A stretch of 64,000 nt of DNA from a bacterium (GTDB lineage: Bacteria; Elusimicrobiota; Elusimicrobia; UBA1565; UBA9628). The notes beneath the pieces were generated by a model. It was not told where the DNA came from, made no database searches, and was given only the letters and a program-made list of their open reading frames with translations. The position numbers and the translations under genes were made by a program. Shown in pieces: positions 14,393 through 21,513 of this stretch; positions within the stretch are counted from its first letter, which is position 1; the number at the start of each line of letters is the position of its first letter. The stretch is from the NCBI GenBank assembly GCA_021822495.1, contig JAKAQO010000003.1, positions 1-64,000 on the forward strand, in the 5' to 3' direction.

Positions 14393-17287
14393 ATGAACAC
14401 CGCTATCTTGGAACAAGAACCAACCGTGAAAGAAAACCAAATTCCCACTGAAAGCCTCTTCGCCAACCGCCATATCGGGCCCTCGGAAAAAGAAATAGCG
14501 GAGATGCTGTCTTTTGTCGGGGCTTCCAGCCTTGAAAATTTAATTGAGCGCGCGGTTCCCAAAACTGTTCTATCGCGGAAATCCATGCGCTTGCCCAAAG
14601 CCTTAAGCGAACGCCAGGCCCTTCAAAAACTAAAAGAGATGGCGGGCAAAAACAAGATTTTCAAATCCTATATCGGCCTGGGTTATTACGACACGTTCAC
14701 TCCCCCCGTCATCAAAAAAAACATCCTTGAAAATCCGGGCTGGTATACGGCCTACACTCCCTATCAAGCCGAAATCGCCCAAGGACGTCTGGAAGCGTTG
14801 CTTAATTTTCAAACCATGATCGAAGATCTGACGGCGTTGCCGATTGCCAATGCCTCGCTTTTAGATGAAGCAACCGCGGCCGCGGAAGCGATGCTCATGA
14901 TGCGAAACTTGTCGGAAAATCAGTCTTCGCTTTTCTTTGTCTCCGATTCTTGTTTTCCGCAGACCCTGGCGGTTGTTTCCACCCGCGCCAAGGCTTTGGG
15001 AATTCAAGTGGAAATTATGCCTGAGGATTCCTTTGACTTTTCAAAAAAGCCATTCGGCATTCTGCTTCAATATCCGAGAAAAGATGGGCTCATTAAAAAT
15101 TATGAATCTCTGTGCCAAAAGGCTCATGCGGCGGGTTCGCATGTCGCCGTCGCCGCCGACCTTCTTAGCCTGACTCTCTTAAAAGCGCCGGGAGAATTCG
15201 GCGCCGATATCGCCGTGGGTTCAACTCAGAGGTTTGGAATCCCCCTGGGTTTTGGCGGCCCTCATGCCGCTTACATGGCGACGAAAGATGAGTTTAAGCG
15301 TCATATGCCGGGCCGAATCGTCGGCGTTTCAAAAGACGCCGCCGGAAAACCAGCTTTGAGACTCAGCCTTCAAACCCGCGAGCAGCACATTCGTCGGGAA
15401 AAAGCGACCTCAAACATCTGCACGGCCCAGGTCCTTTTGGCCGTTGCCGCTGGGGCTTATGCGGTTTATCACGGTCCCAAAGGTCTTCGTCAAATCGCAA
15501 AACGGCTTCACTATCTCACCGCGGCTTTAGCCGAGGGCCTTCAGAATCTTGGTTTTTCAATCAAAAACAAGACTGCCTTTTTTGACACGATTGAAATTTC
15601 CGTTTCTTCCCATGAAACAGACAAAATTCGCGCGGCCGCGGAAAAACAAAAAATGAATTTTTGGTTTGAGGGAAATGAAATCGGCATTTCACTCGACGAA
15701 ACCACCGATGAAAAAGACGTCTTGGACATTTTGTCGGTTTTTGCATCGGTAAAAGACGCCGCTTCTCCAGTGAATCTTCCGGGATCAAGCATCGCCATTC
15801 CAGAGACCTTGCGAAGAAAAAGCGCCTATCTCGCCCATCCCGTTTTCAATTCCTATCATTCTGAGACCGAGATGATGCGCTATCTTAAGCGCCTTGAAAA
15901 CCGCGATCTCTCCTTGGTCCATTCGATGATTTCGCTCGGTTCCTGCACGATGAAGCTCAATGCCGCTTCTGAAATGCAGGCCATGACCTGGCCGAAATTT
16001 TCTCAAATTCATCCTTACGCTCCCCAAAGCCAGACCCGGGGGTATCAGGCCTTAATCAAGGATTTGGAAAGCCGCCTTTGCGCCATCACGGGCTTTGACG
16101 CTTTCTCGTTTCAACCCAATGCCGGTTCCCAAGGCGAGTACGCGGGGTTGCTCGCCATCAAAAGATATCATGAAGCCAATCACAAGCAAAAAAGAAATAT
16201 TTGTCTTATTCCCGCTTCCGCGCACGGAACCAACCCGGCTTCCGCCGCCCTGGCCGGCCTTGAGGTTGTCGTCGTTTCGACTACTCCAAACGGAGATATT
16301 GATGTCGCCGATTTAAAAGCGAAGGCGGAGGAGTTTAAAGATCGCCTGGCCGCGTTCATGGTCACTTATCCCTCGACCCACGGAGTTTTTGAGGCTCAAA
16401 TACGGGAAATTTGCGCCCTCATCCACAAAAATGGCGGCCTGGTTTATTTAGACGGCGCCAATCTCAACGCCTTGGTGGGAATTGGAAAACCCGCAGAATT
16501 GGGCGCGGATGTCTGCCATCTCAATCTCCATAAAACCTTCGCCATTCCGCACGGCGGCGGCGGCCCCGGCATGGGGCCTATTGGAGTCACGAAGGCCTTG
16601 AAGAGCTATCTTCCCGGAAATCCCTTGGACGGAGAGAAAAGTCATGCCGTTTCCGCCGCGCCTTGGGGCTCGGCCTCAATTTTAACGATTTCCTGGTCTT
16701 ATATCGCCCAAATGGGACCCGAAGGACTGCTCAAAGCGACCCAGGTCGCGATTCTTAACGCCAACTATCTGGCCAAAAAACTTGAGAGCTCCTATCCCAT
16801 TCTTTTTAAAGGCCCTGGCAGCTGGTCCGCCCATGAATGCATTATCGAACTGCGGCCGCTCAAAAATTCCGCGGAAGTCACCGCCGAAGACATCGCTAAA
16901 CGCCTGATGGATTACGGCTTTCATGCGCCCACGGTTTCCTTTCCGGTTCCCGGCACGATGATGATTGAGCCCACGGAATCGGAATCTAAATCCGAACTTG
17001 ACCGCTTCTGCGAGGCCATGATTTCCATTCGCAAAGAGATTCAAGAGATCGAAGACGGCCGCGCGGATAAAATAAATAATCTCCTTAAAAACGCGCCCCA
17101 CACGATGGAACAGGTTTGTTCGGATTCTTGGAACAAACCTTACAGCCGGCAGAAAGCCGCGTTCCCTTTGCCATGGATTCAAGACCGCAAGTTCTGGCCC
17201 GCCGTTTCCCGCATCGATAACGCCTGGGGCGACCGCAATTTCTTCTGCTCCTGCCCGCCGTGGGGCGAACCTCAAAATAACTCCTAG
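14393..17287 (+). CDS. gcvP: Glycine dehydrogenase (decarboxylating), fused P protein
   Basis: 964 residues from the ATG at 14393, preceded by GAGGCGA; a TTG 15 bases upstream is the alternative. It decarboxylates glycine with PLP and loads the aminomethyl group onto GcvH. Both halves, separate genes in many non-proteobacterial phyla, are fused here. The N-terminal half ([11 protein letters not shown] to about residue 450) is the non-PLP subunit fold. The C-terminal half carries the PLP lysine K714 in [16 protein letters not shown] and [10 protein letters not shown]. The end, [11 protein letters not shown], is the usual terminus. Last gene of the gcv operon; the defence island begins within about 90 bases. 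Confidence 0.96.
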
Positions 17288-17361
17288 TTCCTCTTAAAGG
17301 GAACAAATTCGCGCGATAACCCGTAAGAGTCATGAAACGCCCGCGAGTTATTCGGGAACTT

Positions 17362-17369
17362 GGTATAAT
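17362..17369 (+). promoter_or_regulatory. Possible extended -10 element upstream of the methyltransferase
   Basis: TGG plus a perfect TATAAT ends 11 bases before the ATG at 17381, with no clear -35. A ribosome-site-like AGGGGGA lies between the two, which would sit at or before the predicted transcript start; so either the promoter or the ribosome site may be fortuitous. Confidence 0.35.
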
Positions 17370-17380
17370 GAGGGGGAATT

Positions 17381-18277
17381 ATGCTCTCAGGACGCGAAAA
17401 AATATTCCGCTCCGAAGACGTTGTAGTCGCCCATGGTAACACACTCGACATCATGGATGAACTTGTTTCTGACTCAACGGCGAATTTGATCTTTGCCGAC
17501 CCGCCTTACAACATCGGCAAGAAATTTGGAATGTTTGTGGACAGATGGGAAAGCGACGACGCTTATGTATCCTGGTGTACGCAATGGCTCGAGCTATGTG
17601 TTCGGAAATTAGCCCCGGATGGGACTCTATATCTTATGACCAGCACACAAGCCATGCCATATCTCGATTTATATCTCCGGTCGCGATTGACCATTCTATC
17701 TCGAATTGTCTGGGTATATGACAGCTCTGGTGTCCAAGCAAAACGCTATTTCGGCTCGCTCTACGAACCGATACTCCATGCCGTCAAGAACCCAAAACGG
17801 TATGTCTTTAACAGTGATGCGGTTTCCGTTGAAGCCAAAACTGGCGCTATCCGGCATCTCATTGATTATCGCAAGCCCACGCCGACACTCTATAACAGCA
17901 AGAAGGTGCCGGGAAATGCTTGGACCTTCCCCAGAGTGCGTTATCGAATGAATGAATACGAAGAACACCCTTCTCAAAAGCCGGAAGCATTACTGGAAAG
18001 AATTATCCTGGCAAGCAGTAACGTCGGTGACCTTGTCGTTGATCCATTTGCTGGGTCGTTTACGACCGGAGCCGTAGCCAAAAAGCTCAAAAGACGCTTT
18101 ATCGGCATAGAAAGAGAATGGCCTTACATCAAGATCGGACTGCGCCGAATTGGACTTCTAAGAGAGCTTGACGGAGAAACACTAATGCCCCCGCGAAAGA
18201 CCTATGTTCGCCGAAGCGAGAAGGCCTTGCAAGGCGCTCAAGAGATTACAGGAAATCTTTTCGACGCAACCACATGA
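17381..18277 (+). CDS. YhdJ-like adenine-specific DNA methyltransferase
   Basis: 298 residues. Transfers a methyl group from S-adenosylmethionine to adenine N6 in DNA. Catalytic motif IV is DPPY (D40) near the N-terminus and the AdoMet-binding motif DPFAGSFTTG (221-230) near the C-terminus, the order of beta-class enzymes. Long stretches, such as YDSSGVQAK, VEAKTG and KVPGNAW, match what I recall of Escherichia coli YhdJ, which methylates ATGCAT; this suggests but does not prove the same target. It overlaps the next gene by 4 bases (ATGA), as expected for a restriction-modification pair. Confidence 0.9.
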   Translation: MLSGREKIFRSEDVVVAHGNTLDIMDELVSDSTANLIFADPPYNIGKKFGMFVDRWESDDAYVSWCTQWLELCVRKLAPDGTLYLMTSTQAMPYLDLYLRSRLTILSRIVWVYDSSGVQAKRYFGSLYEPILHAVKNPKRYVFNSDAVSVEAKTGAIRHLIDYRKPTPTLYNSKKVPGNAWTFPRVRYRMNEYEEHPSQKPEALLERIILASSNVGDLVVDPFAGSFTTGAVAKKLKRRFIGIEREWPYIKIGLRRIGLLRELDGETLMPPRKTYVRRSEKALQGAQEITGNLFDATT

Positions 18278-19425
18278 ATCACCCCTTCACGGAAATCATT
18301 CTTGCGATTCTTCGAAAGCGCTTTCGAGGCGCCGCCAAAGATATTTTTGAAAAGAGTCTTCTAGTGCAGTATCTGAATGTTAAGACTCGCTCCGCCAACA
18401 GTGGCTCAAAATCCCGCGGAGCTTTCGCGAACCATTACGCGCTCTACGTGCTTATTGAAGATTATATCACGAAGGGCTTTCTCTCAAAGAAGAGAGGAGA
18501 TTACAAGGGATACGCGGGCGCAAGGTTTACCGATCTCCTCCAACGACAACGCGAACTTCCTTTCGGGGCGAAACTTCAAAATCATGCGCTAAACTCGCGT
18601 CTAAACGATGAGTTCGCGAAATATTTCCCCACGAGTGATCTTCGCCCCATTCTGCGCGATCAGGTAGCCCAAAGATATTGGATAAACGAACGTCTACTCC
18701 TTTTGCGCGTCGGAACTGGCCGAAATGTTCGGGAAGTAAATATTGCAAAGGAAATAATTGAGATCATCAACAAATATGTTGAAACAAAAAAAGCCGCGTT
18801 CGATGGATTCATCAAGACATGTCGGGAGATAGCGATTCTACCTTTAGAAAGATCACAAGATGTCATTGACTTCGTGACCAGCCAGCTAAAGCCAAATGTT
18901 GACGCCAGGATTTTTGAGATTGTCAGTTTCGCAATTCTCAAGGCCCACTATGAAGAACAAACTGTATTTTGGGGATGGTCAACGAAAAAAATTAAAAAAG
19001 AGTTCCTTATGCTTTACAAGACGGGCAGGACCAACGCGAATGACGGCGGAATCGATTTTGTCATGAAACCATTGGGCCGATTTTTTCAGGTAACGGAGAT
19101 AGTTGATGCAAATAAGTATTTTCTCGATATTGATAAGGTCCACCGATTTCCCCTGACCTTCGTGGTAAAGAGCGTTGATCCAGAAGCAACCATCCAAAAA
19201 CAACTGCGACAAGAGGCTCAGCGCAAGCATGGCGTTAACGCCGTCGTTGAAAAATACATGGGCGCCGTTGAGGATATCATTAACATTCCAAGGTTGCTTG
19301 GTTTATTCGCGCAACTTGTTAAGAAAAACAAAGTCAAGCAGATCATGAATGAGATCGTTCTGCAAAGCCGCGTTGAATTTAATGTCGCCGAAGACGGAGA
19401 GGATGAGTTGGCTACTGACGAATAG
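18274..19425 (+). CDS. Probable type II restriction endonuclease paired with the methyltransferase
   Basis: 383 residues, translationally coupled to the methyltransferase. I do not recognise a named family. The N-terminal half is helical and basic, and a compact segment near residues 255-275 (NDGGIDFVMKPLGRFFQVTE) has the look of a degenerate PD-(D/E)xK nuclease core: GGID acid, beta-hairpin, then F-Q-V. The usual catalytic Lys position is Thr. If the partner methylates ATGCAT, this enzyme would cut unmethylated ATGCAT. The C-terminus is acidic. Gene order, overlap and the lack of any other partner are the main support; the nuclease assignment is inference. Confidence 0.6.
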   Translation: MNHPFTEIILAILRKRFRGAAKDIFEKSLLVQYLNVKTRSANSGSKSRGAFANHYALYVLIEDYITKGFLSKKRGDYKGYAGARFTDLLQRQRELPFGAKLQNHALNSRLNDEFAKYFPTSDLRPILRDQVAQRYWINERLLLLRVGTGRNVREVNIAKEIIEIINKYVETKKAAFDGFIKTCREIAILPLERSQDVIDFVTSQLKPNVDARIFEIVSFAILKAHYEEQTVFWGWSTKKIKKEFLMLYKTGRTNANDGGIDFVMKPLGRFFQVTEIVDANKYFLDIDKVHRFPLTFVVKSVDPEATIQKQLRQEAQRKHGVNAVVEKYMGAVEDIINIPRLLGLFAQLVKKNKVKQIMNEIVLQSRVEFNVAEDGEDELATDE

Positions 19426-19495
19426 GCTACGACAACCTGCGGACATGCATTCATACTCATGTGGTGTCAGAATTGCGGCTGAGGAAAATGTTTGT

Positions 19496-19693
19496 ATGAA
19501 AAAATCTTCAATAAAAAATCTAGGAAATGTTTTAATGACAGCCTTGGCAAAATTAGATGAACGCGGGACTAACGATTCCGTTTCAAAAGCCATGAGTATA
19601 GTTTTCGCTACTCTTAACGCGATGTCCGAAGGGCGTCTCCTAACGGCGGAAGAAGCATATAAAATGGGTAACCAACAAGATGTATGTGGATAG
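19496..19693 (+). CDS. Small ORF in the defence island
   Basis: 65 residues from the ATG at 19496, with GAGGA about ten bases upstream. The sequence (MKKSSIKNLGNVL..., then AMSEGRLLTAEEAYKMGN) is soluble and helical, and I do not recognise it. It lies alone in the 364-base gap between the endonuclease gene and the SIR2-like gene; the rest of that gap holds no other convincing feature apart from the AT-rich leader of the SIR2-like gene. It could be a small regulator or antitoxin-like partner; coding status uncertain. Confidence 0.4.
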   Translation: MKKSSIKNLGNVLMTALAKLDERGTNDSVSKAMSIVFATLNAMSEGRLLTAEEAYKMGNQQDVCG

Positions 19694-19789
19694 AATTTTG
19701 AGGAACTCATTAATTTTTCCACTCTTCCTTAAAAAAACCAGAGAATATCTCATGGCAAGATTGAAACTAGGAACTATGGAGGTGTCTGT

Positions 19790-20782
19790 ATGAGTGGTTC
19801 AGTCTTTGTCCTAGGCTCCGGTTTTTCCAAGGAAGTTGCAGGGTATCCTACTTTACAAGAGCTCTCACTAGAGATTGGGAAATGGATTACCGAATGCAAC
19901 GAGCCCGAAGCCAATTTCATAAAAAATAACGTTTCAAACGAAATCCAAAACAATCTAGAACATTTGCTGTCATATTTATGGATCGAACAACCATGGCACG
20001 ACGTGATTGATCAAATCCGTGCCAAGGCGGCTTATGTATTCGTAACACGACAGCTTCAAAATATATTCGCAAGTCGCAAGGTTCCTGATTTTAACGATTC
20101 ACATCTCGCTCTCGCAAAATCCTGGGATAAAAGTAGAAGCATGTTGATTACGTTTAATTATGACACAGTTATTGAGAAATTAGCCCTACAATTAGGAAAA
20201 GTCGACTTGCTTAGCGATTTATATTGCGTAGCGGTTGCTCCGCTCCATTCGCGCAACCAGGGTTTTGGACACGGAACTATCATTAAACCCAAATTTCACC
20301 TCCTTAAACTGCATGGTTCTCTAAATTGGTTTTACACAGGTGATGCCAGCTATGCAGGCCAGCCAATTTATTATACACACTCAAGCCAACTGCAACTTCC
20401 AGAAGAGCATCAAGACCTTGCGCCCATTATCATTCCTCCTGTCATGGACAAAAACCGATTCTATTTTCATAACGCCCTTAAGCATCAATGGCGTTTGGCT
20501 AAAAAATCTATCCAAGAGGCAGAACATGTATTTTTTATTGGATACTCCATCCCTTCAACAGATTTTTCAATCCAGTTTTTCCTTAAGGAAGCTTTTATGC
20601 AGAGCAAAGCCAAAGTCTTTGTGATTGTGAAAGAATCCGATAGCGAGCAAGCAAATGAAATTAAGGTGCGTTACGAAAAGATTTTTAAGGGCGGTTTAGT
20701 CCAATTTGAATTTAAAAATGCCACTAGCCCGTCACTTACATGGATTCAAGACAACCTAAACAAATTGAACATAAACAAATGA
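19790..20782 (+). CDS. SIR2-like (sirtuin-fold) defence-associated protein
   Basis: 330 residues. SIR2-like proteins in defence islands usually bind NAD and many degrade it during phage infection. The fold markers are visible: nucleotide-binding VFVLGSGFSKE (residues 6-16), TFNYDTVIEK (F122-N-Y-D125), the active-site-like KLHGSLNW with H175, and the C-terminal FIGYSIPSTDFS. No second effector or sensor domain is fused. Start: ATG with GGAGGTG nine bases upstream, a stronger ribosome site than in most host genes here. The stop overlaps the lipoate ligase ATG (ATGA), although the two functions are unrelated. Confidence 0.75.
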   Translation: MSGSVFVLGSGFSKEVAGYPTLQELSLEIGKWITECNEPEANFIKNNVSNEIQNNLEHLLSYLWIEQPWHDVIDQIRAKAAYVFVTRQLQNIFASRKVPDFNDSHLALAKSWDKSRSMLITFNYDTVIEKLALQLGKVDLLSDLYCVAVAPLHSRNQGFGHGTIIKPKFHLLKLHGSLNWFYTGDASYAGQPIYYTHSSQLQLPEEHQDLAPIIIPPVMDKNRFYFHNALKHQWRLAKKSIQEAEHVFFIGYSIPSTDFSIQFFLKEAFMQSKAKVFVIVKESDSEQANEIKVRYEKIFKGGLVQFEFKNATSPSLTWIQDNLNKLNINK

Positions 20783-21513
20783 AACTTAGCGAAGACGAAC
20801 TCTTGAAAAAACCCGCCGTGGAATTAGGGACTGTCCCCATTTCCCGGACGGGGCTCGACGTTTTTTCTCAAATGGCCTTGGACGAGGCCGCGCTTCTTTT
20901 TTCTCCCAAGGAAAGTCTGACTCTGCGCTTTTATTCGTGGTCGGGCCCGGCAGCGACCTTTGGGCGGCATCAATCTTTTCAATTTATCGAACAAGAGCTA
21001 AAGAAAACCGGAAAACCTCATCTTCCCTGCGCGCGGCGGATCACGGGCGGGGGTCTCGTCTTTCACGGAGAAGACATCACATTTTCCCTGACTTTCCCAT
21101 GGAGCGATTTTACCCCTCCTTCTCAAATTTATCAAAGGCTTCATTCTTTGATAGAACTTCAACTCGCCAAGGAAGGCATTTCTCTTAATTTAAAGACTGA
21201 ATCTTCCGCATTGATGGGGCTCAACAAGGTCTGTTTTTCCACACCCGAAAAATCCGATCTGATAACCCCGGCGGGAAAGAAAATTTTAGGCGGGGCTCTC
21301 TGCCGGAAAAACAAACGCGGCCTCTATCAAGGTTCGCTTGAGGCTTCTCTCATTTCTCTTTCCCCGCTTCAAATTGAACGAGCCATTAATGACGCCGTTT
21401 CGCTTTTTGGCGAGAAAGAACCGGAAAAAAAATTTGATTTTATCTCCACGGAAAAATTGCGATCTCTCGTCGAAAAATATCAGTCTGATGAATGGCGTCT
21501 TCGCGTTTCTTGA
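20779..21513 (+). CDS. lplA: Lipoate-protein ligase A family protein
   Basis: 244 residues from the ATG at 20779, which overlaps the SIR2-like stop; an in-frame upstream ATG at 20740 lies within that gene. The family attaches lipoate or octanoate to lysines of carrier proteins. Signatures: QMALDEAALLF, RRITGGGLVFHGEDITFSL (about residues 87-105) and the ligand lysine KILGGALCR. The likely target here is GcvH, whose operon ends 3.5 kb upstream. The first about 20 residues are unconserved and include a palindromic GGGACTGTCCCC (GTVPIS in protein). The native start may therefore have been remodelled at the island junction. Confidence 0.85.
   Translation: MKLSEDELLKKPAVELGTVPISRTGLDVFSQMALDEAALLFSPKESLTLRFYSWSGPAATFGRHQSFQFIEQELKKTGKPHLPCARRITGGGLVFHGEDITFSLTFPWSDFTPPSQIYQRLHSLIELQLAKEGISLNLKTESSALMGLNKVCFSTPEKSDLITPAGKKILGGALCRKNKRGLYQGSLEASLISLSPLQIERAINDAVSLFGEKEPEKKFDFISTEKLRSLVEKYQSDEWRLRVS
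20827..20838 (+). repeat. Degenerate single copy of the GGGGAC palindrome
   Basis: GGGACTGTCCCC is the core of the paired repeat found at 34.0 and 46.2 kb, here preceded by TTA instead of an A-run and followed by ATTTCCC. It encodes GTVPIS at the N-terminus of the lipoate ligase, next to the defence-island edge. Confidence 0.5.

What the first reader, a model, noticed from the sequence alone, without database searches (positions are those of the whole stretch)
17300..20800. Compact M-R-small-SIR2 defence cassette between gcvP and lplA
A YhdJ-like methyltransferase, a partner nuclease, a 65-residue ORF and a stand-alone SIR2-like protein sit together in AT-richer DNA, splitting two lipoate-linked host functions (gcv genes and the lipoate ligase). 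SIR2-like NADases paired with restriction systems could provide a back-up when restriction fails. I know of no named system with exactly these four parts, so this is the best candidate for an undescribed arrangement.
Basis: partly seen in the sequence, partly recalled or inferred. Interest (0 to 1): 0.7.

Follow-up and report, generated by a model that had tools for sequence, protein, structure and literature searches.

The report
Restriction system plus SIR2 at hotspot
A bacterium carries, at one insertion site between two metabolic genes, an ordinary DNA-cutting defence system followed by a separate protein of the NAD-destroying SIR2 kind, and a sister species carries a different DNA-cutting system at the same site.

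Summary
The four ORFs exist as reported and interrupt a gcvP-lplA junction that is intact in three congeners. M and R are a type II restriction-modification pair (YhdJ-like methyltransferase, PD-(D/E)XK-like nuclease); all 80 R relatives examined have this M just upstream. The likely target is ATGCAT: the genome has 57 sites against about 153 expected from congeners. SIR2 keeps its catalytic residues and folds like defence SIR2 NADases, closest to SIR2-HerA, but no HerA is nearby. None of the 80 M-R loci has a SIR2 nearby, so this is not a conserved four-gene system. The 65-aa ORF is an orphan and may not be a gene. SIR2's own clade does sit beside restriction genes in five of nine loci, of four kinds. 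The insert has a 10-bp direct repeat at each end; a sister species shares its 5' leader but carries an m5C methyltransferase and Vsr there. Best reading: two independent defence modules stacked at a cargo-swapping site. A PrrC-like guard role for SIR2 is possible but untested; RM-Sir2 coupling was proposed in 2012 (PMC3506569).

The parts
17254..17263 (+). Left copy of the 10-bp direct repeat CCCGCCGTGG, inside the 3' end of gcvP
   Evidence: the only two + strand copies in the window are this one and 20812-20821
17288..17380 (+). 5' leader of the insert with TTGGTATAATG (-10-like); shared with the sister species that carries a different RM system at this site
   Evidence: (alignment score 39; best of 200 shuffles 5)
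17381..18277 (+). M: YhdJ-like N6-adenine DNA methyltransferase (DPPY motif near the N-terminus, DPFAGSFTTG near the C-terminus)
   Evidence: PF01555 E 1.6e-55; NF008572/PRK11524 429 bits, cut-off 292
18274..19425 (+). R: type II restriction endonuclease, winged-helix-like N-terminal half and PD-(D/E)XK-like C-terminal half
   Evidence: PADLOC REase_II PDLC03455, 513 bits; model pLDDT 84.5; best VIA match EcoT38I, Z 9.7, 266 aligned
19496..19693 (+). 65-aa ORF, orphan, possibly not a gene
19790..20782 (+). SIR2-like protein (PF13289), predicted NADase; invariant N123, D125, H175
20779..20782 (+). ATGA overlap of the SIR2 stop with the likely lplA start
20812..20821 (+). Right copy of CCCGCCGTGG, followed by a remnant of the uninterrupted gcvP-lplA junction as found in congener G004
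   Evidence: score 26; best of 500 shuffles 10.5
20827..20837 (.). GGGACTGTCCC, one copy of a dispersed palindromic repeat (25 sites in 304 kb of this genome)

Best explanation
Two defence modules of known kinds are stacked in one insert. (1) M and R are a type II restriction-modification pair: M methylates adenine in, most likely, ATGCAT, and R cuts unmethylated ATGCAT in incoming DNA. Shown: gene order, families, 80/80 pairing, depletion of ATGCAT. Inferred: enzyme activity and exact site. (2) The SIR2 protein is a free-standing defence effector that, when triggered by infection, destroys NAD+ and stops phage growth at the cost of the cell. Shown: predicted fold and intact catalytic residues. 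Inferred: activity, trigger and effect. It needs neither M nor R. The insert lies between direct 10-bp repeats at the 3' end of gcvP, and the cargo at this site turns over: a sister species has another restriction system behind the same leader.
For: M-R: family scores; M directly upstream in 80/80 R loci across many bacterial and archaeal phyla, and beside R on plasmids. Target: whole-genome ATGCAT count 57 against 116-151 in four congeners, about 153 expected, Poisson p 4.5e-19, while the reversed control TACGTA is not depleted. SIR2: PF13289; motifs GSGFSKE, FNYD, KLHGSLNW; best structural matches SIR2/HerA SIR2 (Z 16.9, 271-276 residues), then SPARSA, ThsA, DSR2. Independence: SIR2 near 0/80 M-R loci; GC of SIR2 0.401 against 0.485 and 0.448 for M and R. 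Hotspot: no insert in G001, G002, G004; m5C methyltransferase, a 259-aa ORF without family match and Vsr in G003 behind a homologous leader; direct repeats and junction remnant.
Against: SIR2's nearest relatives are beside restriction genes in five of nine clade members, which hints at more than chance stacking. One insert carries all four ORFs between one pair of repeats, so they may have arrived together. ATGCAT depletion is not the only one: in a 304-kb sample CATATG is also lower than in congeners (12 sites with 24 expected, against 42 with 24 expected).
Confidence: 0.72

Rival explanations
1. SIR2 is a functional guard of restriction: kept silent while restriction works, unleashed when a phage disables R-M, in the manner of PrrC with the PrrI type I system. 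Different restriction systems can serve as the guarded partner.
For: In SIR2's 9-member clade (support 99/89), four kinds of restriction context occur: hsdM-SIR2-hsdS-hsdR with 4-nt overlaps (L053), SIR2-hsdS-hsdM with overlaps (L188, L190), REase-m5C-Vsr divergent from SIR2 (L189), and the window. Other stand-alone SIR2 genes lie beside type IIG enzymes or in type I loci (L268, L290, L354, L355, L359). Coupling of RM with Sir2 was proposed in PMC3506569.
Against: Partners are unrelated, so no shared binding surface is evident; four clade members have no restriction gene in the DNA held; in the window SIR2 is 365 nt from R and not translationally coupled to it; defence-island clustering gives the same pattern without coupling. 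Part of the restriction seeds came from these very loci, so the association count is biased upward; a 455-kb control from the same genus had two other restriction loci.
Confidence: 0.17
2. The four ORFs form one dedicated M-R-small-SIR2 system, the small ORF being a regulator or inhibitor of SIR2.
For: All lie on one strand in one insert bounded by one repeat pair; the small ORF has a weak in-frame codon signal.
Against: 0/80 M-R loci have SIR2 or the small ORF nearby; the small ORF has no relative upstream of other SIR2 genes or elsewhere.
Confidence: 0.05
3. SIR2 has a housekeeping role, for example as an NAD-dependent deacylase linked to the lipoate or glycine-cleavage genes.
For: SIR2 overlaps lplA by ATGA; SIRT3 and SIRT5 deacylases also appear in the structural list, lower down (Z about 11).
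Against: Absent from the four congeners and the other family members searched; its sequence family and best structural matches are defence SIR2s; the sister species' Vsr shows the same ATGA overlap with lplA, so the overlap follows from the site and not from SIR2 function.
Confidence: 0.06

Closest known systems
YhdJ ATGCAT methyltransferases and YhdJ-type type II RM pairs on plasmids (e.g. Leptospira noguchii p2, E. coli pEC22)
   Same: M passes the PRK11524 cut-off; R relatives lie next to yhdJ on these plasmids
   Different: E. coli YhdJ is an orphan enzyme without R (own knowledge; ATGCAT specificity from PMC9239280); here M has a REase partner
SIR2-HerA (Nezha) SIR2 subunit
   Same: best structural match over most of the protein (Z 16.9), profile match E 2.9e-14
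   Different: no HerA near the window SIR2 or in 455 kb searched from the genus
Other defence SIR2 NADases: ThsA, DSR2, SPARSA SIR2-APAZ
   Same: same catalytic SIR2 fold
   Different: the window protein is a bare 330-aa SIR2 domain, with no room for the extra sensor or partner domains of these proteins
PrrC-EcoprrI and other toxin genes linked to type I RM (PMC3506569)
   Same: defence effector gene beside restriction genes; relatives are embedded in hsd operons
   Different: SIR2 instead of an anticodon nuclease; here a type II system; no evidence of physical coupling
EcoT38I type II REase
   Same: best VIA structural match to the R model (Z 9.7, 266 residues)
   Different: no sequence match; different predicted target

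Membership tests
Type II restriction-modification, YhdJ-type (ATGCAT) | M is an N6-adenine methyltransferase of the YhdJ family | tested here: met
   NF008572 429.5 bits, cut-off 292
Type II restriction-modification, YhdJ-type (ATGCAT) | separate REase gene adjacent to M, pairing conserved | tested here: met
   PDLC03455 513 bits; 80/80 loci paired
Type II restriction-modification, YhdJ-type (ATGCAT) | host avoidance of the target site | tested here: met
   57 against about 153 expected ATGCAT sites; indirect evidence only
Type II restriction-modification, YhdJ-type (ATGCAT) | R cleaves and M protects the same sequence | not testable with these tools
   needs an enzyme assay or a methylome
Defence SIR2 NADase | SIR2_2 domain with catalytic Asn and His | tested here: met
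   PF13289 33 bits, cut-off 24.5; N123, D125, H175 invariant in 18-20 relatives
Defence SIR2 NADase | NAD+ hydrolysis upon infection | not testable with these tools
   needs an experiment
SIR2-HerA (Nezha) | adjacent HerA/DUF87 ATPase | tested here: not met
   no HerA match in the window or in the other genus DNA searched
SIR2-HerA (Nezha) | SIR2 subunit fold | tested here: met
   Z 16.9
Restriction-linked suicide gene (PrrC-type coupling) | gene lies recurrently within or next to an RM operon | tested here: inconclusive
   5 of 9 clade loci, four kinds of RM; seeds partly biased; not with this M-R family
Restriction-linked suicide gene (PrrC-type coupling) | activity silenced by the RM complex and released by anti-restriction | not testable with these tools
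   needs an experiment

The most novel reading that the evidence does not exclude
This SIR2 subfamily is a portable guard of restriction that has paired repeatedly with unrelated type I and type II systems and senses their failure rather than a phage part, so that NAD depletion is the second line behind DNA cutting.
Probability: 0.14. Interest if true: 0.72.

Novelty: new member of a known kind. Interest (0 to 1): 0.36.

Why it matters
As it stands it is a clean natural example of defence cargo being exchanged at a fixed chromosomal site without an evident integrase: three congeners without an insert, two different restriction cargos behind one shared leader, and short direct repeats that mark the ends. 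If the SIR2 really guards restriction, it would extend the PrrC idea from tRNA cleavage and type I systems to NAD depletion and type II systems.

Tried and rejected
Four-part system: rejected by the 0/80 census. SIR2-HerA membership: rejected for lack of HerA. A partner role for the 65-aa ORF: no relative in Pfam, PADLOC, NCBIfam, PHROGs, plasmids, viral contigs or any fetched locus. Mobile element carrying the insert: no transposase or integrase seen among the ORFs of the insert, no tRNA in the window, leader absent from plasmids and viral contigs. RNA families: none in the window. Promoter and terminator scan: fewer matches than in shuffles, uninformative. Foldseek alone gave no significant match for R; the VIA second look gave EcoT38I. 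A sequence profile of R found no solved relative. One phylum group held only 5 genomes and was uninformative. Literature searches found no described SIR2-type II RM cassette, but most subscription papers are not held.

Full report
What is there. The window is the start of a 212-kb contig of a 2.2-Mb genome. Between gcvP (ends 17287) and an LplA-family gene lie four ORFs on the + strand: M, R, a 65-aa ORF and SIR2. Flanking identities: GcvH and GcvP pass NCBIfam cut-offs; the ligase passes Pfam LplA-B_cat but no NCBIfam cut-off.

M and R. M is a YhdJ-family N6-adenine methyltransferase. R has no Pfam family but matches a PADLOC type II REase model with 513 bits. A scan of genome contigs with a small R alignment gave 465 relatives; in all 80 best loci a YhdJ-like M lies directly upstream. 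Relatives also sit on plasmids of Leptospira, Lactiplantibacillus, Acetobacter and enterobacteria, either tandem or convergent with yhdJ and sometimes with a small helix-turn-helix gene. The predicted R structure (pLDDT 84.5) has a helical, winged-helix-like N-terminal half and a nuclease-like C-terminal half; Foldseek alone gave nothing significant, but the second look placed EcoT38I first with Z 9.7 over 266 residues, followed in the C-terminal half by MspJI, BspD6I and Bse634I. The conserved stretch NDGGIDFVxxPxGRFFQVTE (residues 256-275) is the likely active site; I did not assign single catalytic residues.

Target. YhdJ methylates ATGCAT (PMC9239280). The whole genome holds 57 ATGCAT sites; the four congeners hold 116-151 in slightly smaller genomes. 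About 153 would be expected, p 4.5e-19, and the reversed control TACGTA is not depleted. This fits long restriction pressure at ATGCAT. It is indirect, and CATATG is also lower than in congeners in the part sampled.

SIR2. The protein is a bare SIR2 domain of 330 aa. N123, D125 and H175 are invariant among 18-20 relatives. A profile of relatives matches solved SIR2 subunits of SIR2-HerA (E 2.9e-14) and SPARSA. The model (pLDDT 71, weak in 149-165 and 180-212) is closest to SIR2-HerA SIR2 (Z 16.9), then SPARSA, ThsA, DSR2 and Kom SIR2; human sirtuins come lower. No HerA lies nearby. NADase activity is inferred.

Are the four a system? No SIR2 occurs in any of the 80 M-R loci in the DNA held; 65 have at least 1.5 kb and 40 at least 5.5 kb downstream of R. 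Four viral and the other plasmid loci agree, with pEC22 the one exception: there a SIR2-HerA pair lies near R and M. The small ORF has no relative anywhere searched. GC falls from 0.485 (M) to 0.401 (SIR2). So M-R is complete without SIR2.

Does SIR2 belong with restriction at all? Its relatives were sought in 341 genomes of the phylum and about 1,170 others. In a 56-row tree the window SIR2 falls in a nine-member clade (99/89). Among these nine, L053 has hsdM-SIR2-hsdS-hsdR with 4-nt overlaps; L188 and L190 have SIR2-hsdS-hsdM with overlaps; L189 has SIR2 next to Vsr, an m5C methyltransferase and a type II REase; the window has M-R. The other four (L054, L186, L187, phage-borne L305) show no restriction gene in the DNA held; L054 carries nearly the same SIR2 as L189 in another context. 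Branches are long and the join of the window with L186 is unsure. Outside the clade, stand-alone SIR2 genes lie beside type IIG enzymes (L354, L355, L359) or in type I loci (L268, L290), while a 22-member Bacteroidota group showed none with my seeds. Control DNA of 455 kb from the genus had two other restriction loci. The seeds were taken partly from these loci, so I do not attach a p-value. PMC3506569 already noted Sir2 enzymes linked to type I RM and proposed suicide coupling on the PrrC model.

The site. G001, G002 and G004 have gcvP running straight into lplA. In the window the last codons of gcvP contain CCCGCCGTGG, and the same ten bases recur 3,558 bp downstream, where they run on as the uninterrupted gcvP-lplA junction of G004 (27 of 28 bases identical). 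This looks like an insertion footprint at the 3' end of gcvP that gave gcvP a new tail. G003 has the same gcvP tail and a clearly homologous leader with TTGGTATAATG (score 39 against at most 5 in shuffles), but behind it lie an m5C methyltransferase, a 259-aa ORF and Vsr instead. In both species the last cargo gene overlaps the lplA start by ATGA. Thus the site holds exchangeable restriction cargo in line with the gcv-lplA genes. How cargo moves is not known; no recombinase was seen in the insert.

Verdict. Two known kinds of defence are stacked at an exchange site. The guard reading is testable and would be worth testing.

Noticed in passing
L050 3841-6155 (congener G003, between gcvP and lplA): A different cargo at the same site: m5C methyltransferase, 259-aa ORF of unknown family (position suggests the REase) and Vsr, behind the same leader as in the window.
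   Followed up: yes
L053 850-8201; L188 2947-8852; L190 878-4562: Relatives of this SIR2 encoded inside type I RM operons with 4-nt overlaps (hsdM-SIR2-hsdS-hsdR; SIR2-hsdS-hsdM).
   Followed up: partly
L188 6667-7719 and L186 128-460: The gene directly upstream of SIR2 matches PADLOC candidate family PDC-S42 in two different loci of the clade; a possible SIR2 partner, not found in the window.
   Followed up: partly
window 20827-20837 and 24 other places in 304 kb of the genome: GGGACTGTCCC is a dispersed REP-like palindromic repeat; one copy lies at the right end of the insert, and a near copy at the intact junction in G004.
   Followed up: partly
L124 3652-11784 (Planktothrix paucivesiculata): Four tandem copies of the M-R pair, unit 2319 bp, two of them identical; amplification or assembly artefact.
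   Followed up: partly
L047 (E. coli plasmid pEC22): SIR2-HerA pair a few genes from a YhdJ-type M-R pair on one small plasmid; the SIR2 is not listed in the gene table.
   Followed up: partly
304-kb sample of G000: CATATG is much rarer than in congeners (12 against 42 in a smaller sample), perhaps another restriction target.
   Followed up: no
L265-L291 (Bacteroidota): Many members of a 22-row SIR2 group of about 372 aa sit next to the same run of genes of about 453, 625 and 227 aa: a fixed chromosomal context, perhaps a non-mobile role.
   Followed up: no
L305 (viral contig IMGVR_UViG_2791355313_000001): A phage or prophage carries a SIR2 of this clade between terminase-like and portal-like genes.
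   Followed up: no
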